This document shows positions 8,796 through 30,420 of a stretch of DNA of 64,000 nucleotides, piece after piece. The translations under genes were made by a program, and so were the position numbers. Position 1 is the first letter of the stretch, and the number at the start of each line of letters is the position of its first letter. The notes under the pieces were generated by a model, which saw nothing but the letters and a program-made list of their open reading frames with translations, did not search any database and was not told the origin of the DNA. The DNA is from an uncultured Hyphomicrobiales bacterium (lineage in GTDB: Bacteria > Pseudomonadota > Alphaproteobacteria > Rhizobiales > Xanthobacteraceae), in assembly GCA_903878085.1 (NCBI GenBank), contig CAIRGJ010000008.1, positions 124,001 through 188,000 on the forward strand, given 5' to 3'.

Positions 8796-10466
8796 CTACG
8801 ACGCCGCCTTGATCAGGCGTTCGGCGGCGGCGCGGGCCTCGTTGGTGATTTCGGCGCCGGCCAGCATGCGGGCGATTTCCTCGCGGCGGCGGTCCTCGGC
8901 CACCTCGGTCACACGGGTGGCGACCCGCTTGCCCTTCTCCAGCGCATCCTTGCTGATGACGTAATGCCGGTCGGCCTGCGCCGCGACCTGCGGCGCATGG
9001 GTCACCGCCAACACCTGCACGCCACGGGCGAGCCGCGCCAGACGCACGCCGATGGCATCGGCCACCGCACCGCCGACGCCGGTATCGATTTCGTCGAACA
9101 CCAGCGTGGGCGCCGAGCCGCGATCGGCCAGCACTACCTTGAGCGCCAGCAGGAACCGCGCCAGTTCACCGCCGGAGGCGATCTTCATCAGCGGGCCCGG
9201 CTTGGTACCCGGATTGGTCTGCACCCAGAATTCGACGCGGTCGATGCCGTTTAGCCCCGCGGCGGCCGGATCGGTTTCGATCTTGGTCGAGAAATTGGCG
9301 CGCTCCAGCTTGAGCGGTTTCAACTCGGCATTGACCGCCTTGTCGAGCGCGGCGGCCGCCTTGGCGCGCGACTTGGACAGAGCCTCGGCGCTTTGGCGGA
9401 AATCGGCGTCGGCCTTTTCCGCGGCGGCGACCAGCGTCTTGAGTTGCGCTTCGCCGGCGTCGATCAGCGCGATGTCGTTGTTGTATTTAGCCGACAGCGC
9501 CGCGAGATCGTCGACCGGCACGTTGTATTTGCGTGCCGCCGCGCGCAGCGCAAACAGCCGCTCCTCGTTACGCTCCAGCTCGGCCGGATCGAAATCGGCG
9601 GTGCGCAGCGCGGCCTCGAGATGGCCGCGGGTTTCTTCCAGCGCGTTGAGCGCGACGTCGAGCGACTTCACCGCAGGCTCGACCAGGCTCGGCGCCTGGG
9701 TGCTGCGGCGCTCCAGCCGGCGGATGACGCCGGCGAGCGCGGGCACGCTGGAGTTCGACCCGGCAAGGATGTCATAGGCGTCGCGCAGATCCTCGGCGAC
9801 TTTTCCGGACTGCATCATCACGGTGCGGCGGGTGGCGAGCGTGGTCTCCTCGCCGGCTTGCGGCGCCAGTTTGTCGAGCTCGTCGACCGAATGGCGCAGC
9901 CAGTCGCTTTCGCGCTTGGCGCGTTCGACCTCGGCACGATGGGCGTCGGCGGCGTCCTGCGCTGAGCGGCGCGCCTCCCACAACGCGGCGACCTTGGCGG
10001 CGTCGGCTTCCAGCGCGCCATACGCGTCGAGCAGGCTGCGGTGGGTGCCGGCATCGACCAGCGCGCGGTCGTCATGCTGGCCGTGGATTTCAACGAGGGC
10101 AGCACCAAGTTGCCGCATCACCTGGACGCTGACCGGCTGGTCGTTGACGAAGGCGCGGGTGCGGCCGTCGGACAACTGGACCCGACGCAAAATGAGTTCG
10201 TCGTCCGCGGCGATATCGTTGGCCTTCAGCAGCGCGCGCGCGGGATGCTTGGGCGAGACTTCGAACACCGCGATCACCTGGCCCTGCTCGACGCCCTGGC
10301 GCACCAGGTTCTGGTCGCCGCGGCCGCCGAGCGCCAGCGCGAAGGAATCCAGCAAAATCGATTTGCCGGCGCCGGTCTCGCCGGTGAGCACGGCAAGGCC
10401 CTCGGCAAAATCGATGTCGAGCCGGTCGATCAGGACGATATCGCGGATCGAGAGACGGGAGAGCAT
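8796..10466 (-). CDS. recN: DNA repair protein RecN
   Basis: A 556-residue SMC-like ATPase of double-strand-break repair. Walker A is GETGAGKS (about 30-37). A long helical/coiled middle runs from about 150 to 380. The C-terminal signature is ASGGELARFLLALK and Walker B is TLVFDEIDTGVGG. The ATG at 10466 gives the canonical MLSRLSIRDIVLIDRL start; an upstream frame extension is not family-like. It lies between bamD and ligA, a common alphaproteobacterial order. The 147-bp gap to bamD carries a palindromic repeat. Confidence 0.95.
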   Translation of the reverse strand: MLSRLSIRDIVLIDRLDIDFAEGLAVLTGETGAGKSILLDSFALALGGRGDQNLVRQGVEQGQVIAVFEVSPKHPARALLKANDIAADDELILRRVQLSDGRTRAFVNDQPVSVQVMRQLGAALVEIHGQHDDRALVDAGTHRSLLDAYGALEADAAKVAALWEARRSAQDAADAHRAEVERAKRESDWLRHSVDELDKLAPQAGEETTLATRRTVMMQSGKVAEDLRDAYDILAGSNSSVPALAGVIRRLERRSTQAPSLVEPAVKSLDVALNALEETRGHLEAALRTADFDPAELERNEERLFALRAAARKYNVPVDDLAALSAKYNNDIALIDAGEAQLKTLVAAAEKADADFRQSAEALSKSRAKAAAALDKAVNAELKPLKLERANFSTKIETDPAAAGLNGIDRVEFWVQTNPGTKPGPLMKIASGGELARFLLALKVVLADRGSAPTLVFDEIDTGVGGAVADAIGVRLARLARGVQVLAVTHAPQVAAQADRHYVISKDALEKGKRVATRVTEVAEDRRREEIARMLAGAEITNEARAAAERLIKAAS

Positions 10467-10539
10467 GGCGACCTTGTAGCAAAGATTCGGGCTGGCCGGA
10501 TCATCGCAAGGGTGCAAGACGACGATCCCCGGCACAAGA

Positions 10540-10573
10540 GGGCGTTCACGCCCGTCTTCGACGGGCTATGGCC
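10540..10573. repeat. Dispersed palindromic element, copy A
   Basis: GGGCGTTCACGCCC is followed by GTCTTCGACGGGC then TATGGCC. The same layout (GCG-TTTACGCGC-GTC-TTTCGCGC-TATGGCC) recurs at 11509-11543 on the other side of bamD. Both can fold into tandem short hairpins. The type is common between genes in Bradyrhizobium relatives. Confidence 0.55.
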
Positions 10574-21678: not shown

Positions 21679-23208
21679 ATGGTCAATCGATTGGCGACGG
21701 CGCAATTCACCGTGGCGATGTGGCGTTGGCGGCCTGCCGCCATCGTAACACTCGCGGCGATGGCCGCGCTTACGGCGCTGACCGCCGACGCCGGTGCGAG
21801 ACAAGCACGCCCCGCGCCACCCCAAGAGACGACGGCGCCGCGCGATGCAGGCGAGCCGATCATGGCGATCGTGTCGATCAAGACCCAGCAGGTCACTTTA
21901 TACGACGCCGACGGTTGGATCCTGCGTGCGCCGGTATCGACCGGCGTCGGGGGGCGCGAGACGCCAGCCGGCGTCTTCGCCGTCATCGAGAAGGACAAGG
22001 ACCACCACTCGAGCATGTATGACGATGCCTGGATGCCGAACATGCAGCGAATCACCTGGAACGGCGTCGCACTGCACGGCGGGCCGCTGCCCGGATATGC
22101 GGCCTCGCATGGCTGCGTGCGCATGCCCTTCGGCTTTGCGGAGAAGCTGTTCGACAAGACACGGATCGGGATGCGGGTGATCATCTCGCCGAACGACGCG
22201 GCCCCGGTCGAGTTTTCCCACCCGGCGCTATTCATGCCGAATGCGGAGGCCGTCGCGGCTGCTCCGGCGCGTGCCGAGACGCTCGCCCGTGAGGCCGTGG
22301 AGGCCGCCAAGGCGGCCGCCGAGGCGAAGAAAGCCGCCGTGACAGCGGCGCGCGAGGCCAAATCGATCACGGCGTCGCTGCGCAAGCTGGAATTGCGCAA
22401 GAGGAGCGCTGACGCCGAGCTCGCGTCCGCCGACAAGGCACTCGACGCACCAAAAACGGACCAAGCCAAGGCGCGGGCCGAGGACCGGAAGCAGAAGGCC
22501 GCGGCCAAGGCCACTGAAGCGGTGACGCAGCTCGACACCGCCACGGCCGACGCGAAGTCAAAACTCGACGCCGCTGCCGCCGCAAAGGACGCCGCCAAGG
22601 CGGCCGACACCAAGAAGGCCACCGCCGCCAAGGCAGCGAACGAAGCAAAGCTCGCGCTCGATCCGGTTTCGATCTACATCAGCCGCGCGACGCAGAAGCT
22701 TTACGTGCGACGCAATACGCATAAGAAGTGGCCCGACGGTGGGGAAGTGTTCGACGCGACCATCGAGGTTCCGGTCACGGTCCGCGATCCAGACAAACGG
22801 ATTGGAACGCATGTGTTCACCGCGATGGCGCGCAACGACGCGGGCCTGCGCTGGACCGCAGTCACGATCGACAACGCGGACGACGCCAAGAACGCGCTCG
22901 ACCGCATCACCATCCCGCAGGATGTGCTCGATCACATCGGGCCGACCGCATTGCCGCGATCCTCAATCGTCGTCTCGGACGAGCCGCTGAGCAGCGAGAC
23001 GAACTATCGCACCGAGTTCGTCGCGGTGCTGAGCAACCAGCCCCAGGGTGGCTTCATAACGCGCGAGCGTTCGACCGATGTCCTCGTTGCGAGCGACAAC
23101 GTCCGGAACGACGACGGCTTCTCTTTTTTCCAGCGCAACTGGGACTTCCAAACTGGCAATACGCGTCGGCGCGGCGACTATCATCGGATGCAACAGTTCT
23201 GGCGGTAA
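21679..23208 (+). CDS. L,D-transpeptidase (YkuD) with long Ala/Lys coiled region
   Basis: A 509-residue protein with a basic N-terminus and one hydrophobic segment (about 19-38, signal or anchor). The YkuD catalytic domain (about 60-172) has His133 and the SHGCVRM motif with nucleophile Cys146 and Arg148. Residues about 190-325 are an Ala/Lys/Glu-rich heptad-like region. A folded C-terminal domain without recognised family follows. It would make 3-3 peptidoglycan cross-links or attach proteins to the stem peptide in the periplasm. It is transcribed against the dcw cluster, between murC and murG, so it is an insertion into conserved order. Start ATG 21679 follows a GGAG. Confidence 0.85.
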   Translation: MVNRLATAQFTVAMWRWRPAAIVTLAAMAALTALTADAGARQARPAPPQETTAPRDAGEPIMAIVSIKTQQVTLYDADGWILRAPVSTGVGGRETPAGVFAVIEKDKDHHSSMYDDAWMPNMQRITWNGVALHGGPLPGYAASHGCVRMPFGFAEKLFDKTRIGMRVIISPNDAAPVEFSHPALFMPNAEAVAAAPARAETLAREAVEAAKAAAEAKKAAVTAAREAKSITASLRKLELRKRSADAELASADKALDAPKTDQAKARAEDRKQKAAAKATEAVTQLDTATADAKSKLDAAAAAKDAAKAADTKKATAAKAANEAKLALDPVSIYISRATQKLYVRRNTHKKWPDGGEVFDATIEVPVTVRDPDKRIGTHVFTAMARNDAGLRWTAVTIDNADDAKNALDRITIPQDVLDHIGPTALPRSSIVVSDEPLSSETNYRTEFVAVLSNQPQGGFITRERSTDVLVASDNVRNDDGFSFFQRNWDFQTGNTRRRGDYHRMQQFWR

Positions 23209-23529: not shown

Positions 23530-24630
23530 CTATAGTCCCGCCACTTTCATTACCAAATCCGCCAGCCGCTCGGCGGCGTCGGTGGCGCCGGCCGATTTGG
23601 CCGCCTCGGCCATGCGGGAAAGCTGCGCCGGGTCGGCGGCGAGGCGGGTGATCTCCGCCGCCAGCCGCTCGGGGGTGAAGTCGCGCTGCTCGATTCTGAT
23701 TGCACCGCCTGCTTCCTGAAGCACGCCGGCATTGTGGAACTGATCCTGGTCCAGCGCATGCGGCAGCGGCACCAGAATCGAGGGCCGGCCGATGGCGGAC
23801 AACTCCGCCACCGTCGACGCGCCGGAGCGCGCGATCACCAGATGGGCACCGGCGATGCGCGCCGGCAGATCGGAAAAGAACGCGGCGACCTCGGCGGCGA
23901 CGCCGAGCTTGGCGTAGGCGCCCTCTACGTCGGCAATATCTTCGGCGCGCGCCTGCTGCGTCACCGACAGCCGCACCAGGAGTGCGACCGGAATACGCTC
24001 GAACGCCTTGGGCACGATCTCCGACATCACCCGCGCGCCCTGGCTGCCGCCGAACACCAGCAGGCGGATTTTTTCGTTCAATGCGGGCGCGGCGTAAGGC
24101 ACGTGCGAGGCTTCGATCACGACAGGCCGCACCGGATTGCCGGTGAAGGTAATTTTGCCTTGCAGGCGCGGATCGACGCGCGTCAGCTTCGGAAAGCTGG
24201 TGGCGATGGCGGTGACGCGCGAGGCCAGAGCGCGGTTGGCACGGCCCATAACGCCGTTCTGTTCGTGCAGCACGGTCGGCACGGAGCGCAAGCTCGCCGC
24301 CAGCAGCGGCGGCACGGTCGGATAGCCGCCAAAGCCGACCACCACCGCGGGACGGATGCGGCCGATCAGCGTCCAGGCTTTGGCGATGCCGAGCGCCAGC
24401 AGGACGCCGGTTTTCGCCAGCGCGATCGGGTTGCGGCCGCGCACGGTGGCGCTGGGAATGAGGTGCACGTTGCGCGCCGGGAATTTGTAATGAGCGGCGC
24501 GATGGTCGGTGGCGAGATCGACGGTAACACCGCGCTTGTTGAGCGCCACGGCGAGGGCTTCGGCTGGAAACAGATGGCCGCCGGTGCCGCCGGCCGCGAG
24601 CAGCACGAGCGGCGGCGCGCCGGAAGACAT
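23530..24630 (-). CDS. murG: Undecaprenyl-diphospho-muramoylpentapeptide GlcNAc transferase
   Basis: A 366-residue GT-B glycosyltransferase forming lipid II at the inner face of the membrane. LAAGGTGGHLFPAEALA (glycine-rich loop 1), HEQNGVMGRANRALAS, VFGGSQGARVMSEIVP, ARSGASTVAELSAIGRPSILVPLPHALDQDQ (UDP-GlcNAc site). The ATG overlaps the ftsW TAA by one base, indicating coupling. Followed by the oppositely oriented L,D-transpeptidase instead of murC. Confidence 0.95.
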   Translation of the reverse strand: MSSGAPPLVLLAAGGTGGHLFPAEALAVALNKRGVTVDLATDHRAAHYKFPARNVHLIPSATVRGRNPIALAKTGVLLALGIAKAWTLIGRIRPAVVVGFGGYPTVPPLLAASLRSVPTVLHEQNGVMGRANRALASRVTAIATSFPKLTRVDPRLQGKITFTGNPVRPVVIEASHVPYAAPALNEKIRLLVFGGSQGARVMSEIVPKAFERIPVALLVRLSVTQQARAEDIADVEGAYAKLGVAAEVAAFFSDLPARIAGAHLVIARSGASTVAELSAIGRPSILVPLPHALDQDQFHNAGVLQEAGGAIRIEQRDFTPERLAAEITRLAADPAQLSRMAEAAKSAGATDAAERLADLVMKVAGL

Positions 24631-25778
24631 TAAATCAAACTCCCCGCCGGCAGCGGGTCGGGCGCCAGCATGGCCGCGCGCGGTTGCTCGCGCGTGAGAG
24701 CCAGCAGCATGCCCATGGCATAGCTAAGCGAGATCATCGACGAGCCGCCGTAGGAAATGAATGGCAGCGTCATGCCCTTGGCCGGAATCAAATGCAGATT
24801 GACCGACATATTGATCGCCGACTGGGTTGCGAACAGCATGGTCAGGCCGGCGGCGGCAAAGCGCGGGAACGGATCGTCGTTGCGCATGGCGCGGATCAAC
24901 GCGCGGATGACGATGAAGGCGAACAGCGACACCAGCACCAGACACAGCGCGACGCCGAACTCTTCCGCCGCCACCGCGAACACGAAGTCGGTGTGGCTCT
25001 CCGGCAGCAAACGCTTCACCGTGCCCTCGCCCGGGCCCTGGCCGAACCAGCCGCCGCGCATGAAGCTCTCGGTGGCGATGTCGATGTTGAAGGTGTCGCC
25101 CGAGGCCGGATCGAGAAAGCGCTGGATGCGGCGCGCAACGTGCGGCACCGTGAAGTAGGCGCTGAGCAATCCTAAGCCCGCGATGCCGGCGATACCGAAC
25201 ATCCAGACCAGGCGCATGCCGGCCATGAAGAACAGCGCGCTCCACACCAGCACGATCAGCATGGTCTGGCCGAAATCCGGCTGGATGACGAGCAGCGCCA
25301 CCACCAGCAGCAGCATCGCGAGGGCGATGGCGTTGGCCGGCATGTCGGGGCGCCTGGCCGATTCGCCGAACAGCCAGGCGATCAGAATGACGAAAGCGGG
25401 TTTAAGAAATTCCGACGGCTGGATATTGACGCCGAACAAGATCAGCCAGCGCTTGGCGCCCTTGATCTCGGCGCCGAAATGCGGCGTCGCTGCCACCATG
25501 ACCAGGCTGATGGCGAACACCACGATCGACAGCCGGCGGATCTGCTGCGGCGAGAGAAACGACACCGCCAGCATGATGGCGATGGAGGGAAACAGAAACA
25601 GAATGTGGCGGTTGACGAAATAGAACGGATCGAGCCCGAGGCGGCCGGCGACCGGGGGGCTGGCCGCCAGCGACAGCACCACGCCGGTGAGCATCAGCGC
25701 GCCGATGGCGCCGAGCGTCAGCCGGTCGATGGTCCACCACCATTCGCCGAACGGCGTGCGGGTCGCGCGCGAAACCAT
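24630..25778 (-). CDS. ftsW: Septal peptidoglycan polymerase FtsW
   Basis: A 382-residue SEDS-family polytopic protein with about 10 membrane segments. GAKRWLILFGVNIQPSEFLKP carries the conserved region before the catalytic aspartate loop; VIQPDFGQTMLI, HTDFVFAVAAEEFG and GMTLPFISYGGSSM are family landmarks. It polymerises glycan strands with FtsI at the septum. The ATG at 25778 is chosen over a TTG at 25790. The preceding gap of 107 bp separates it from the inserted hydrolase gene. Confidence 0.94.
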   Translation of the reverse strand: MVSRATRTPFGEWWWTIDRLTLGAIGALMLTGVVLSLAASPPVAGRLGLDPFYFVNRHILFLFPSIAIMLAVSFLSPQQIRRLSIVVFAISLVMVAATPHFGAEIKGAKRWLILFGVNIQPSEFLKPAFVILIAWLFGESARRPDMPANAIALAMLLLVVALLVIQPDFGQTMLIVLVWSALFFMAGMRLVWMFGIAGIAGLGLLSAYFTVPHVARRIQRFLDPASGDTFNIDIATESFMRGGWFGQGPGEGTVKRLLPESHTDFVFAVAAEEFGVALCLVLVSLFAFIVIRALIRAMRNDDPFPRFAAAGLTMLFATQSAINMSVNLHLIPAKGMTLPFISYGGSSMISLSYAMGMLLALTREQPRAAMLAPDPLPAGSLI

Positions 25779-25885: not shown

Positions 25886-26488
25886 TCAGGGCAAAACGCC
25901 GAAATGCTTGGCCAGATCGGCCGGCATCATGTCGGGCGGTGCCCGGTCGAAGGTGACGCCGGCCAGTTGCAAGGCGCGCGCAATCAGCGACACGCAGCCC
26001 GGTTTGCCGGTGTCCGGTACGCGCAAACGGTCGCCAAGCACGACCGAGAGGGCGAGCAGCAGAAAACCCGCGAGATCGTAGCGCTGGCCGAGACACCCGG
26101 TGGCGTATCGCGCCGCCTCGCGCCGCGCATCCTCGCTCAGGTCGAGCCGTACATAGCAGAAGTCGGTGTCGCGGTATTTCTCGATGCCGCACAGGCCGAC
26201 GCCTCGCGCATGCACTTCAAGCAGATGGCCGGCATCGTTGACCACCAGCGCGGCATGGCTCCAATAACCGTAGCGCAGGTCGTCGTTGCGGAAGCGAGCC
26301 CAGGCGAAGAGCCGGATCGCCCGGCCGAGCCAGCCAGGTCCGCGGATGAGAATGACGTCACCAGGGCGCAAGCCGGTGACGATCTCGCCGGGCGGGCAAC
26401 GGACGTAATCGCACGCCATGCGCCCGCCGAACGGCGCGGCCGTTCCGGTATGTTCAACCGGCGTCGCAACAACGGCGGACCTCGTCAT
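25886..26488 (-). CDS. YiiX/YebB-like permuted papain-fold cysteine hydrolase
   Basis: A 200-residue protein. GDVILIRGPGWLGRAIRLF near the N-terminus, then YWSHAALVV (candidate catalytic His, about 79), CLGQRYDLAGFLLLAL, and GKPGCVSLIARAL (candidate nucleophile Cys, about 167). This order, His before Cys, is the circularly permuted NlpC/P60-like arrangement (YiiX, LRAT relatives). Such enzymes hydrolyse amide or ester bonds of peptides or lipids. There is no signal peptide. The start ATG 26488 is 2 bp from the LamG gene's stop, so it is the last gene of the four-gene insert. Confidence 0.75.
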   Translation of the reverse strand: MTRSAVVATPVEHTGTAAPFGGRMACDYVRCPPGEIVTGLRPGDVILIRGPGWLGRAIRLFAWARFRNDDLRYGYWSHAALVVNDAGHLLEVHARGVGLCGIEKYRDTDFCYVRLDLSEDARREAARYATGCLGQRYDLAGFLLLALSVVLGDRLRVPDTGKPGCVSLIARALQLAGVTFDRAPPDMMPADLAKHFGVLP

Positions 26489-26490
26489 CG

Positions 26491-27503
26491 TCAGCCCGCC
26501 GGTACGGTTGTTTTCCCGCTACCGTCATTGAAATGCGTCAATATATCCCCATCCGAAAGCACGTCATTGTAGATCGCGACATCCTGGATCGTGCCGTTGA
26601 ACGGAAACAATGGAAAGGATGCGTCGGGCCCCCCCGGCGTGCGCGGCAGGAACCATGGCACTCCGACGCCGATCACCAATGGCGACAGCGTGTTGGGCGC
26701 GTAAGTCCCCCCCCCAACGGCGTTAGCACCGACGCGGGATTGCCGTTGATGAAGAGTGTGGCATTGTTGGTATCGTTGACTGTCAGCACGACGTGCGTGG
26801 ACTGCTCCAGGGTCGCAGCTCCGCCGGTGACGAGGACGAATGCCGAGGCCCCTGCGACGCCCAGTTCCGCCTCCCAATTGCCGGCTTCGTTGACGTCGAT
26901 GGCAAAGCCGGTGAAAGCCGTCCCTGTGATATTGCGGGAATCGATAATCACGTGGAACGCCGGCGACGCTGCGGCACTCCACTCCGGCTGCACCCAGCAT
27001 TCGACGGTGAAGGGCGGCGCCGGATTGATGACGCCGTTGACCGGCACGGTGACGAAACCACCATTGACCTGCATGCCGGTCGCGAGGACGTTGGGATCGT
27101 TACCGGGCTGTACGGCGTCGCCCTTCACGATGGACACGACACCAAGCGCCAGCGAGCCGAGCGCTGGCGCGCTATCGACACCTGCGGCGACCTGGAACCC
27201 GGGACAGGGAAACAAATCCGGCGCGTTGCCCTTGTGCGTATAGTGGCCGGTGTGGCCGCCGACGATGTCGGCCGCTTTTGCGGTGGCGACCGGGTTGGCC
27301 GCCGTGGCCGACGGCTCATTCAAGGGCCAATAGGCAACGGCCGAACTATTGCCGGTAACGTCGCCGCTGTATTGGGTGAAGGGTGTGGGCGGCGGCGGGA
27401 CATCCCCGAGGCCATGTGTGTGGAACGCACAGCCGACGAAGCAGAATGTCCCGATCAGAGCGAGAAGCGCGATGGGCACGAAAACGAGCAGGGACGCAGT
27501 CAT
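26491..27503 (-). pseudogene. LamG/concanavalin-like putative lipoprotein, frameshifted at a C9 tract
   Basis: The first frame (27503 down to about 26707) encodes a hydrophobic N-terminus ending FVGC (Cys25), then a LamG-like beta-sandwich: VAYWPLNEPSATAANP, PFTVECWVQPEW, HVVLTVNDTNNATLFINGNPA. The fold finishes in another frame: VIGVGVPWFLP, FNGTIQDVAIYNDVLSDGDILTHF. The switch point is the G9 run (26707-26715 on +). The span is 1,013 bases; one added base gives 338 codons, so the intact protein would be 337 residues. The signal is odd: no Lys/Arg before the hydrophobic core and Phe at the lipobox -3 position. It could be a sequencing error, a real lesion or a phase switch. Confidence 0.75.
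26707..26715. repeat. Nine-base C homopolymer inside the LamG gene
   Basis: Nine consecutive C on the + strand (G9 in the coding sense) exactly where the reading frame of the LamG protein breaks. Runs of this length are prone to slippage in replication and in sequencing. Confidence 0.9.
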
Positions 27504-27589
27504 AGCTTACCCCCAAGTCGCGCGTGCGCATGTGGACGTGGAAGACGAACCACTTCAGCAGCGCTGCGAAAACCGAATACGAAATCTTG

Positions 27590-27643
27590 AACTTATTCTT
27601 GAGCGAACAACGAATAAGTTACTATCCTAAATTGCAATGTCAA
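27590..27643 (-). promoter_or_regulatory. Promoter with overlapping palindrome upstream of the LamG gene
   Basis: On the minus strand a perfect -35 TTGACA (27643-27638), 16-bp spacer, and TAACTT (27621-27616) as -10. AACTTATTC (27590-27598 on +) and GAATAAGTT (27612-27620) form a perfect 9-bp inverted repeat covering the -10 and start region, an expected repressor position. The surrounding DNA is far more AT-rich than the window. The elements begin 7 bp after the lgt stop and lie 87-140 bp before the LamG start. Confidence 0.55.
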
Positions 27644-27649
27644 TTGAGG

Positions 27650-28390
27650 CTATTTCCCTCCCCACAGCCATACGCAAAGCCCGGCCAGCAGCGCCGCCGT
27701 GACGAGAACAGCGGAGGTCTTTTGGACGGCGGCGTTCTCGTCGTCGCCCTCGTCGCGCAGCTTTTGCAGGAAGATGCGGCCGGCCGGTTGGAGCACGAAG
27801 ACCGCACAAGCCACCGCGCCCGAAGGGGGCGAGGCACTGCGCCATGCCAGCATGAGCAACAGCACAAAGGCGGCCCATGCCATCTCTACCAATTGGCTCG
27901 GAAAGCGCCGGCGCCATACGCCACAATGATCGGGCAAGTTGACGCCACACCAGTGATCAGTCGGGAGCCCATAGCAGCACCCGTTCAAGAGACATCCTGC
28001 TTTGGCCACGGCGATGCCGCCCAGCATGCCGAGAACGAGCGCATCCATGAACGGCGCGAACGGCAGATCGAGCGCCCACAACAGCGGGATGGAGCCGGCG
28101 ACTATGCCAAAAAACCCGCCGTGAAGCGCCAGCCCGCCTTCCGAGCGGCGCAGGATGCGGGCCGGGTCGCGCCTGAAGTGTTCCCAGTGACGGGCAACGT
28201 AAAACAGCCGCGCGCCGACGAAAGCGGGGACGAACGAAAGAACGATCGCCAGCGCTGTGCGGTCGGGGTCTAGGCCGTCCGCTTGCGCGAGATGGACGGC
28301 AAGAAACACGGTGACCAGCAGGGCCGCATAGATCATGACGTGGTAGCTGTGCAGAACGAACCCGTGCCAGACGAACAAAATGGGGCGCAT
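27650..28390 (-). CDS. Divergent prolipoprotein diacylglyceryl transferase (Lgt family)
   Basis: A 246-residue polytopic membrane protein. GGLALHGGFFG keeps the HGG motif of Lgt. The signature region reads AKAGCLLNGCCYG where housekeeping Lgt has GRIGNF-NGELWG, so the essential Arg is Lys and other signature positions are Cys. GCCYG variants form a known side branch of PF01790. The reaction expected is transfer of diacylglycerol to a lipobox cysteine. It starts 2 bp after the lspA-like gene and lies directly upstream of a putative lipoprotein gene. The N-terminal extension of the frame is antisense to nothing useful and the start ATG 28390 is clear. Confidence 0.82.
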   Translation of the reverse strand: MRPILFVWHGFVLHSYHVMIYAALLVTVFLAVHLAQADGLDPDRTALAIVLSFVPAFVGARLFYVARHWEHFRRDPARILRRSEGGLALHGGFFGIVAGSIPLLWALDLPFAPFMDALVLGMLGGIAVAKAGCLLNGCCYGLPTDHWCGVNLPDHCGVWRRRFPSQLVEMAWAAFVLLLMLAWRSASPPSGAVACAVFVLQPAGRIFLQKLRDEGDDENAAVQKTSAVLVTAALLAGLCVWLWGGK

Positions 28391-28392
28391 AC

Positions 28393-28818
28393 CTACACCA
28401 AAACCCACAGCGCGAGCGCAAGGCCACCGACAATCGCAAGGTCGGCCAAATTGAATACCCACGGATAGATCGCGATGAAATCGACGGCGCCGCCGCGCTG
28501 CAGGCGGTCCATCAAATTGCCGGTGATGCCGCCGACCGCCATGCCGATGCCGACGGCGGCGACGGTGCCCTGCGCCAGCGGTCCTTGCGACAGCGACAAC
28601 AGCGCGAGCGCGGCGCATAAAATCCATACGCCGACGATCAGCCAACGCGCCCGCAAGGGCATGACGGCCGCGCGCCGATTGAGAATGCAGCGGATCGCAA
28701 AGAACGCCCGCGGCCCCGGCGTATCGCGCCAGCGCGGCTGGGCCAAAACATGGCGCTTGCTCAACTGATCGGCGAGAACAACGGCGGCGCCCGCGACCAA
28801 AGGTTCAAGCCACGCCAT
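28393..28818 (-). CDS. Signal peptidase II-like protein (second LspA)
   Basis: A 141-residue protein with about four membrane segments. GNLMDRLQRGGAVDFIAIYP and VFNLADLAIVGG carry the two catalytic aspartates of LspA. The central LNRRAAV replaces the usual N-x-GAAF motif, so it is divergent. The ATG at 28818 has a perfect AGGAGG 6 bases upstream, the best ribosome site in the cluster. First of the insert, 84 bp downstream of murD. Alternatively it could be the only LspA of the organism, but the dcw position and divergence argue for an accessory copy. Confidence 0.82.
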   Translation of the reverse strand: MAWLEPLVAGAAVVLADQLSKRHVLAQPRWRDTPGPRAFFAIRCILNRRAAVMPLRARWLIVGVWILCAALALLSLSQGPLAQGTVAAVGIGMAVGGITGNLMDRLQRGGAVDFIAIYPWVFNLADLAIVGGLALALWVLV

Positions 28819-28902: not shown

Positions 28903-30321
28903 TCAGGCAATCGGCGTGACGCCCGGCAATGCCAGCACCAGGTCGCTGAAGGCTTTGCCGCGCACCTCGAAGTTCGGGTACTGGTCGAACGAGGCGCAAG
29001 CCGGCGACAGCAGCACGATCGGCTCCTTGAGGCCGGACGCCTCGGCGTCGCGCGTCGCCTGATCGATCGCCGCCGATAGCACGCCGCTGATCTCCCTAGG
29101 CACCTGGCCGTCGAGCGTCCGCGCGAAATCCTGCGCCGCCTCGCCGATCAGATAGGCTTTGCGGATGCGCGGGAAGAACTCGGCTAGGCCCGCAATGCCG
29201 CCGGTCTTCGGCTTGCCACCGGCGATCCAAAAAATATCGGGGAAGCTGGCCAGCGCCTTGGCGACCGAATCGGCATTGGTCGCTTTGGAGTCGTTGACGA
29301 ACAGCACGCTGCCGGCGGCGGTCTTCTTGCGGCCGACCTGCTGCATGCGATGCGCGAGGCCGGGAAAGCTGACCAGGCCTTTCTGGATTTCCGCGAGATC
29401 GAGCCCGAGCGCAACGCAGGCGGCAACCGCGCAGGCGGCATTCTGCGCATTATGCGCGCCGCGCAACGAACCGATGCCAGCGAGTTGCGCCACCGGATGC
29501 GCCTTGCCGCCGACGCCGAGCATGATGCGGCTGCCTTCGGCATAATAACCGTCGCGCAGCGGCCCCAGCACCGACACACGCACGACTTTTTTGCCGGCGC
29601 GTTCGATGCGCTCGGCGGCCTCGCGGGTATAGCGGTCATCGACGCCGATCACGGCGACCTGTTCGGCGGACGCCGCCAGCAGCGTCTTGATCGCGGCATA
29701 GTTCTCGATGGTGCCGTGGCGGTCGAGATGGTCTTCCGACACGTTGAGCAGAATGCCGACGGTCGGCTTCAGCGACGGCGCCAGATCGATCTGGTAGGAC
29801 GACACTTCCAGCACATAGGCGCGACCAAGTCTGCCTATTTGCGCGAACGGCTCCAGCGCCAGCACCGGCACGCCGATATTGCCGCCCATCTGCGCGTCGA
29901 TGCCGGCGCTCTTGAGCAGATGCGCGATCAGCGCGGTGGTGGTCGATTTTCCGTTGGTGCCGGTGATGGCGACCAGCGGGCACGCGGCGCCCGACATGGC
30001 CCGTTGCAGGCAGAACAGTTCGATGTCGCCGATGATCTCGACGCCGGCTTTGGTGGCGAGTTGCACCGACCAATGCGGCGTCGGATGCGTCAGCGGCACG
30101 CCGGGCGCCAGCACCAAAGCCGCGATCTTGGTCCAGTCGAGCTCGCGCAGGTCCTGCGTCGTGACGCCGGCGGCTTTTGCGGCGGCCAAGCTCTTCTCGT
30201 TATCGTCGAAAGCGATGACCTCGGCGCCGCCCTGCATCAAGGCCTTGGCCGACAGCAGCCCCGAATTGCCGAGGCCGAACACCGCGACCGTTTGCCCGAC
30301 GAAGGTGGTGATGGGGATCAT
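28903..30321 (-). CDS. murD: UDP-N-acetylmuramoylalanine--D-glutamate ligase
   Basis: A 472-residue Mur ligase. [15 protein letters not shown] (N-domain), [19 protein letters not shown] (ATP loop), [47 protein letters not shown], and [22 protein letters not shown]. Start ATG 30321 ([16 protein letters not shown]); the longer frame runs into the upstream repeat. It adds D-Glu. Normally followed by ftsW; here by the inserted lspA-lgt-LamG-hydrolase block. Confidence 0.95.
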
Positions 30322-30326
30322 TCTCT

Positions 30327-30420
30327 GTCGTCCCGGCCGAGCGAAGCGAGGGCCGGGACCCATACTCCGCGGCCTATCGGTAGGTCAGTGGTTATGGGTC
30401 CCCGCTTTCGCGGGGACGAC
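30327..30420. repeat. Dispersed inverted repeat in the mraY-murD gap
   Basis: Outer arms GTCGTCCCGG (30327-) and GGGGACGAC (-30420) with inner arms GGGACCCATA and TATGGGTCCC. Each half also folds on itself (CCCGGCC...GGCCGGG; CCCCGC-TTTC-GCGGGG). It fills nearly all of the 109-bp gap. This is an abundant repeat type in Bradyrhizobiaceae genomes. Confidence 0.7.

What the first reader, a model, noticed from the sequence alone, without database searches (positions are those of the whole stretch)
25886..28818. Dedicated lipoprotein-processing module inside the division cluster
Four minus-strand genes sit between murD and ftsW, where these two genes are normally adjacent: a second LspA, a divergent Lgt, a LamG-type putative lipoprotein and a YiiX-like cysteine hydrolase. 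Gaps are 2, 146 and 2 bp. The client has an abnormal signal (no Lys/Arg before the core, lipobox FVGC), and the Lgt signature is altered (Arg to Lys, Cys at other key positions: AKAGCLLNGCCYG). An inference that fits all of it: a private Lgt/LspA pair matures an atypical lipoprotein that the housekeeping enzymes would not take, and the hydrolase acts on it or with it at the envelope.
Basis: partly seen in the sequence, partly recalled or inferred. Interest (0 to 1): 0.85.

Follow-up and report, generated by a model that had tools for sequence, protein, structure and literature searches.

The report
Private lipoprotein-making cassette in Pseudolabrys
Some bacteria of one genus carry, in the middle of their cell-division genes, a four-gene set that looks like a private workshop for putting a lipid anchor on one unusual surface protein, next to the general workshop they also have; its enzymes are altered near their active sites, so the anchor or the way it is added may be unusual.

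Summary
Second LspA (28818-28393), divergent Lgt (28390-27650), LamG client and YiiX-like cysteine enzyme (26488-25886) lie between murD and ftsW. No comparable Lgt2 was seen in 397 order and 398 phylum genomes sampled. Presence is patchy (3-4 changes on trees), so the set is gained or lost as a unit. From the conserved Met, the client's signal has no charge before the invariant CFVGC in 6 of 6 copies (a charged upstream start is excluded in 2). Lgt2 lacks residues essential in E. coli Lgt (R143 to K, N146 to C, G142 to A, 5 of 5) but keeps R239; LspA2 keeps its aspartates but has a shortened substrate loop. Best reading: a private, client-specific lipidation line, perhaps with a changed lipid. 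No lipidation was shown; C92 shows no signal peptide and its role is open.

The parts
28393..28818 (-). LspA2, second lipoprotein signal peptidase, 141 aa; catalytic Asp113 and Asp126 kept, extracytoplasmic loop shortened, Gly54 position is Arg49
   Evidence: Pfam Peptidase_A8 E 2.1e-19; 5-genome alignment; alignment with the housekeeping LspA; PDB profile matches 9emz, 5dir, 6ryo
27650..28390 (-). Lgt2, divergent prolipoprotein diacylglyceryl transferase homologue, 246 aa; K130 for R143, C133 for N146, A129 for G142, Q209 for E243; R205 (R239) and G141 (G154) kept
   Evidence: Pfam LGT E 8.6e-36, NCBIfam lgt below cut-off
26673..27503 (-). LamG client, first frame: uncharged signal, CFVGC, linker, most of the Laminin_G_3 domain (the last residues before the stop are out of frame)
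26707..26715 (.). G9 (minus strand) homopolymer at which the LamG frame breaks; assembly error, mutation or slippery tract, not decided
26491..26682 (-). C-terminal part of the LamG domain in the other frame (boundary approximate)
   Evidence: 86.5 bits, model positions 259-331
25886..26488 (-). C92: permuted papain-like (YaeF/YiiX-like) cysteine enzyme, 200 aa, H78, E91, Y137, C165; no hydrophobic N-terminus
28903..30363 (-). murD, upstream flank
   Evidence: 73-86% identical copies beside the module in four relatives
24630..25778 (-). ftsW, downstream flank

Best explanation
The four genes are one unit: a private lipoprotein-maturation line for one client. The LamG protein is inserted by its short uncharged signal; Lgt2 puts a lipid on the second Cys of the CFVGC box; LspA2, whose entry loop is shortened, removes the signal; the LamG lectin-like domain stays anchored at the cell envelope. 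The YiiX-like enzyme, from a family with a fatty-acid pocket, is the likeliest to touch the acyl part (add, remove or supply an acyl chain), but where and on what is open. Shown: the genes, their conservation as a set, the altered residues, the conserved signal. Inferred: that Lgt2 and LspA2 act on this client, and every chemical step.
For: Set inheritance: Lgt2, client and close C92 in the same 5 of 43 genus genomes, at the same murD/ftsW site with LspA2; the close forms of the three are absent from the other 38 (11 of these have only distant C92 matches of 29.4 bits or less). 26 module-free ftsW loci examined have murD upstream and none of the module genes (loci were held for 30 of 40 ftsW matches). 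Patchy: 4 changes on the ftsW tree (4 labelled carriers of 30 rows), 3 on the murD tree (5 of 20 rows), both also the least forced by well-supported branches. Constraint: mean pN/pS 0.31-0.49 in the five gene parts tested. Client: 0 of 6 copies has K/R/D/E between the conserved Met and the lipobox Cys; CFVGC invariant; signal 67% against mature part 54% mean identity among the five copies of four relatives. Lgt2: K for R143 5/5 against R in 37/37 other Lgts, A for G142 5/5 against G 37/37, C for N146 5/5 against N 36/37. LspA2: both catalytic aspartates invariant, loop about 7 residues shorter than in the housekeeping LspA and NRR for NTG; flexibility of that loop, with Gly54, is proposed to reflect substrate promiscuity (PMC6952399, passages). 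Housekeeping enzymes exist, so the second pair is not needed for general lipoproteins.
Against: No lipidation data. Linkage alone could keep four neighbouring genes together. In this strain the client frame is broken as assembled. Only in the window and L036 is the conserved Met the first possible start; in L035 (both copies), L037 and L043 the frame is open further upstream, with charged residues, so the uncharged n-region rests there on where similarity begins. Lgt2 lacks several residues essential in E. coli Lgt, so it may not be a diacylglyceryl transferase. LspA2 of 3 of 5 genomes lacks Arg110, whose Ala mutant is inactive in S. aureus LspA, while a G54A mutant there is fully active, so the Gly54 change is weak evidence. 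Trees of the module genes differ from each other and from murD, so parts may have been exchanged separately. C92 shows no signal peptide. One of ten pairs of the relatives' copies has the signal less alike than the mature part.
Confidence: 0.54

Rival explanations
1. Repurposed enzyme: Lgt2 no longer transfers diacylglycerol from phosphatidylglycerol but moves another lipid, or none, and LspA2 cleaves that product. The module is a different modification built from lipoprotein parts.
For: R143, G142 and N146 replaced in 5/5, H103 and Y235 in 4/5; the authors of PMC13251419 suggest another acyl substrate or mechanism for Lgts that lack R143 and R239 (section 13 read).
Against: R239, R246, G154, D129 and E202 positions are kept and the Y26 position is Tyr or Phe; Lys could still bind phosphate; LspA is known to act on diacylglyceryl-modified substrates.
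Confidence: 0.22
2. Spare, inhibitor-tolerant copies: Lgt2 and LspA2 back up the housekeeping enzymes against natural inhibitors such as globomycin or myxovirescin; the LamG and C92 genes are passengers.
For: Globomycin and myxovirescin producers have extra lspA copies (PMC8689077, passages); the loop altered in LspA2 contacts these antibiotics (PMC6952399, passages).
Against: It gives no reason for an altered Lgt, for the conserved odd client signal or for 5 of 5 linkage with C92.
Confidence: 0.1
3. Chance neighbours in a variable insertion site: the murD-ftsW gap takes up different genes in this genus, and these four happen to sit together.
For: The gap holds another short gene in 8 of 26 module-free loci and extra genes in L036; GC3 of the module genes is lower than that of ftsW and, mostly, murD.
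Against: The same four families, order and strand in 5 of 5 carriers with protein identities down to 51%, and patchy presence as a set.
Confidence: 0.06
4. The client is a plain membrane-anchored protein whose N-terminal helix is never cut; Lgt2 and LspA2 serve other proteins.
For: Uncharged helix, lipobox off consensus at -3 (consensus as).
Against: CFVGC invariant in 6 of 6 while much of the helix varies.
Confidence: 0.05

Closest known systems
Canonical Lgt-LspA-Lnt lipoprotein pathway
   Same: Two enzymes of the same Pfam families beside a lipobox-bearing protein
   Different: Second copies, side by side, altered near the active sites, one client, no Lnt in the set; the general enzymes are encoded elsewhere
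Accessory lgt genes in genomes with two or more copies (e.g. M. smegmatis MSMEG_5408, B. cereus-group plasmids), PMC13251419 section 13 (read)
   Same: Second Lgt; N146C also in MSMEG_5408; plasmids with lgt also encode lipoproteins of conjugation, a precedent for an Lgt with its own clients
   Different: No LspA partner is described in that section; here a chromosomal four-gene set with Lys for R143
PbrC (predicted signal peptidase II) with PbrB in the Cupriavidus lead-resistance operon, PMC3431237 (passages)
   Same: Extra signal peptidase II next to one proposed client
   Different: No Lgt mentioned there, PbrB/PbrC reported as a fusion protein, metal-resistance setting
LnsA of the LnsAB lipoprotein N-acylation system, PMC7387801 (passages)
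   Same: Permuted papain-like enzyme with YiiX and LRAT-group homologues, tied to lipoprotein acylation; 189 aa against 200
   Different: LnsA has a predicted signal peptide and needs LnsB; C92 shows none and no LnsB-like gene is among the four; the sequences were not compared here
YiiX and BcPPNE (2IF6, 3KW0), PMC3142127 (passages)
   Same: His-Glu-Tyr-Cys order; profile match to 3KW0 E 4.1e-6 over the N-terminal half, through three distant relatives
   Different: No PDB match of the five module C92 proteins alone at E up to 10

Membership tests
Lgt (PF01790) | Family profile over its curated cut-off and full length | tested here: met
   123.9 bits against 24.9, positions 1-240 of 240
Lgt (PF01790) | R143 and N146 of the signature motif (required in E. 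coli, PMC13251419) | tested here: not met
   K and C in 5 of 5; so called Lgt-like, activity not claimed
Lgt (PF01790) | R239 and G154 | tested here: met
   5 of 5
Lgt (PF01790) | Diacylglyceryl transfer from phosphatidylglycerol | not testable with these tools
   needs mass spectrometry
LspA (PF01252) | Family profile and catalytic aspartate pair | tested here: met
   70.6 bits against 25; D113 and D126 in 5 of 5
LspA (PF01252) | Gly54 and Arg110 among the 14 highly conserved residues named in PMC6952399 | tested here: not met
   Gly54 is Arg in 5 of 5; Arg110 kept in 2 of 5 (list)
Permuted papain-like YaeF/YiiX (C92) | His, acidic residue, Tyr, Cys in that order | tested here: met
   H78, E91, Y137, C165 invariant in 8 of 8 aligned
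Permuted papain-like YaeF/YiiX (C92) | Profile match | tested here: inconclusive
   window protein no match; best of the module's five E 0.067; 5 of 8 in the wider alignment match at E up to 1, best 3.6e-10
LnsA | Signal peptide for export | tested here: not met
   highest 19-residue hydropathy in the first 60 residues 0.71-0.92 in 5 copies as aligned; hydropathy only, no SignalP
LnsA | Partner LnsB (CPBP-like) | not tested
   not among the four genes; the genome was not searched for it
Bacterial lipoprotein precursor | Positively charged n-region | tested here: not met
   0 K/R in 6 of 6 from the conserved Met; an upstream start is excluded in the window and L036 only
Bacterial lipoprotein precursor | Lipobox [LV][ASTVI][GAS]C as given in PMC8689077 | tested here: not met
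   F-V-G-C: -2, -1 and +1 fit, -3 is Phe
Bacterial lipoprotein precursor | Lipid on Cys+1 | not testable with these tools
   needs mass spectrometry

The most novel reading that the evidence does not exclude
A complete private lipid-anchoring line with its own chemistry: Lgt2, with Lys in place of the phosphate-binding Arg143 and three Cys in its signature, attaches a lipid other than phosphatidylglycerol-derived diacylglycerol to a charge-free CFVGC signal, LspA2 cleaves only that product, and the YiiX-like enzyme sets the acyl state, so that one LamG protein carries a lipid tag that the general processing and sorting machinery does not read.
Probability: 0.17. Interest if true: 0.85.

Novelty: new variant of a known kind. 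Interest (0 to 1): 0.6.

Why it matters
Lipoprotein maturation is usually treated as one general line per cell. A cassette in which a divergent Lgt and LspA travel with one odd client and with an enzyme of a fatty-acid-handling family gives a natural, dispensable set in which enzyme and signal may have changed together. It would make testable what Lgt variants without the canonical residues do (a question raised in PMC13251419), and whether YiiX-like enzymes act on lipoproteins (proposed in PMC3142127).

Tried and rejected
Lipo-invert lead: the window LamG protein matched NCBIfam invert_tail weakly (E 0.0093, 16.3 bits against a cut-off of 37); 1 of 6 clients did, and in genomes the model gave sub-cut-off matches at E up to 1 in 18 of 20 genomes (own included) and in all 14 controls, so I take it as a hydrophobic chance match; no paper holds the term.

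TafC fimbrial protein: matches 3 of 6 clients, over the C-terminal LamG half, at 22.4 bits or less against a cut-off of 410; no paper holds TafC with 'fimbri', and the 20 of 244 papers listed for TafC deal with a siderophore.

The distant C92 matches in four order genomes have no Lgt2-, LspA2- or LamG-like match worth naming within the 5-20 kb fetched (tblastn at E up to 1), so they look like stand-alone enzymes. A second GCC-type Lgt in G050 (L117) keeps R143 and has no LspA2- or C92-like match in 20 kb. Plasmids: no match for a relative's client or for C92; Lgt2 matches 232 records, all under 60% identity, 187 of them Enterococcus; one such region is a copper-resistance stretch with no LspA2-like match longer than 17 residues. 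Viral contigs: none confirmed.

Structure of C92: pLDDT 34, unusable, no fold search made; the LamG structure job was never accepted. A control of ordinary lipoprotein signals gave only 3 non-module candidates, each with K/R in its longest start: too few to count. LspA2 was not searched for over the genus on its own; it is known from the five loci. In some searches at most 8 first-look candidates per genome were scored, so weak relatives could be missed. The 37 Lgt comparators are the loci held (not all matches), taken as stop-to-stop frames and found by similarity to Lgt2 or Pfam, so not a random sample.
Full report
WHAT IS THERE. The window lies in a 4.4 Mb genome (99.29% complete by the tool's figure) of a genus that a relative's record names Pseudolabrys (L035 title). 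Between murD and ftsW, all on the minus strand, lie LspA2, Lgt2, a LamG protein and a C92-type cysteine enzyme. One point is not: the LamG gene is broken in the window. Its first frame stops at 26673 and the last part of the domain is in another frame; the break falls at a run of nine G, the only homopolymer of eight or more in 64 kb. Five copies in four relatives are open over the whole domain. Both parts of the window gene show pN/pS values in the range of the relatives' copies, so the break is recent or an assembly error.

IS IT MORE THAN CHANCE. In 43 genomes of the genus, Lgt2 occurs in 5 (E at most 1.1e-76), the client in the same 5, and the close C92 in the same 5 at 355-371 bits, all other C92 matches (in 11 further genomes and as second matches in two carriers) being 29.4 bits or less. 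Each of the five has LspA2, Lgt2, LamG (two copies in L035) and C92 in one order between murD and ftsW. Of 40 ftsW matches in the genus, 30 had loci; 26 of these carry no module gene, and all 26 show murD upstream: 17 with at most about 240 bp between the matches, 1 about 460 bp, 8 about 710-750 bp with another short gene. On the ftsW tree the module label needs 4 changes for 4 labelled carriers in 30 rows (no clustering at all: 500 of 500 shuffles as low); on the murD tree 3 for 5 carriers in 20 rows (28 of 500 shuffles as low); in both the same number is forced by well-supported branches. So the set was gained, exchanged or lost several times. Outside the genus nothing comparable was found: the best other Lgt2 matches are 66.8 bits in 397 order genomes and 65.6 in 398 phylum genomes against 459.1 for the own one; C92 29.0 bits at best in 397. 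These are samples, with at most 8 candidates scored per genome. One scan of GTDB contigs with exact peptide patterns gave one locus, L035, whose contig length equals that of the G064 contig (20,587), so I treat them as the same.

THE GENOME HAS THE NORMAL LINE. Housekeeping lgt (C46, 253.9 bits), lspA (C8, 110.4 bits) and lnt (C4, 315.4 bits) are elsewhere.

THE CLIENT. All six copies begin M-(T/S) at the start of similarity and reach CFVGC with no K, R, D or E between. In the window a stop two codons upstream excludes a longer charged start, and in L036 the same Met is the first possible start; in L035, L037 and L043 the frames are open further up and carry charged residues there, so the absence of charge is certain in two of six and likely in the others. 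CFVGC is invariant. The signal is on average more alike (67%) than the mature part (54%) among the five copies of four relatives, 9 of 10 pairs in that direction and one against. The mature part is a linker and a Laminin_G_3 domain; its only PDB match at E up to 0.01 is near the N-terminus of pappalysin-2.

THE ENZYMES. In E. coli Lgt, Y26, H103, R143, N146, G154 and R239 are given as absolutely required and G142 and Y235 as essential for viability, but H103 varies naturally, N146C and E151C occur in distant Lgts (PMC13251419: section 13 read in full), and E151A and E243A mutants support growth (passages). R143 and R239 surround the ester bond of the lipid donor (PMC4728403, passages). So Lgt2 belongs to the divergent, uncharacterised end of the family. 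LspA2 keeps both catalytic aspartates but is 141 against 171 aa; its extracytoplasmic loop is about seven residues shorter and starts N-R-R instead of N-T-G. Flexibility of that loop, with Gly54, is proposed to reflect substrate promiscuity; but G54A is active there, G54P and R110A are not (PMC6952399, passages). Arg110 is kept in 2 of 5. C92 has H78, E91, Y137 and C165 in all five and in three distant relatives, the pattern of permuted papain-like enzymes; YiiX of this group carries a fatty acid in its pocket and was proposed to act on acylated proteins such as lipoproteins (PMC3142127, passages), and LnsA, needed for lipoprotein N-acylation, has its closest structural homologues there (PMC7387801, passages). 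LnsA has a predicted signal peptide; C92 shows no hydrophobic N-terminus, so it may act from the cytosolic side, or on lipid rather than protein.

HOW IT MOST LIKELY WORKS. A private pair matures one client whose signal and enzymes changed together; confidence 0.54. No chemical step is shown. The main rival is that Lgt2 does a different lipid transfer (0.22); the two share the private line and differ in chemistry. Spare inhibitor-tolerant copies (0.10), chance neighbours (0.06) and an uncut membrane protein (0.05) fit less.

WHAT IS KNOWN. Second lgt genes are common (about 1,300 genomes in PMC13251419), globomycin and myxovirescin makers have extra lspA copies (PMC8689077, passages), and an LspA-like PbrC beside one proposed client is known in the pbr operon (PMC3431237, passages). 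I saw no paper on a joint Lgt/LspA/client/YiiX-like set in the open-access library: listings (20 of 210 papers; 4 of 4; 12 of 72); subscription journals are mostly not covered. Hence a new variant of a known kind.

LIMITS. Four of five carriers are drafts of 64 to about 630 contigs, G027 has 4; G066 has two ftsW loci, one with and one without the module, so its bin may be mixed. Module gene trees disagree with each other and with murD. The C92 model failed.

Noticed in passing
murD-ftsW gap in L091, L095, L096, L099, L103, L104, L105, L110: Eight module-free genomes carry a 165-169 aa frame here whose sequence looks like the YciE/DUF892 ferritin-like family (name recalled, not searched); the site takes different cargo in this genus.
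   Followed up: partly
L036:4048-6612: Between murD and LspA2 of G009 sit an outer-membrane beta-barrel gene and an AraC-type regulator.
   Followed up: partly
window 21679-23205 +: A YkuD L,D-transpeptidase gene lies on the opposite strand between murG and murC; in L037 murG and murC are adjacent.
   Followed up: partly
window 26707-26715: G9 tract inside the LamG gene, the only homopolymer of 8 or more in the window; could be an assembly error or a slippery tract.
   Followed up: partly
L117 about 10013-10573: G050, of another family of the order, has a second GCC-type Lgt that keeps R143 but has Gln at the H103 position.
   Followed up: partly
L043 and L084: G066 holds two ftsW loci, one with and one without the module; a mixed bin or a real duplicate.
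   Followed up: no
L035:8897-10941: Two LamG client genes in tandem, 65% identical in the alignment, in G064.
   Followed up: no
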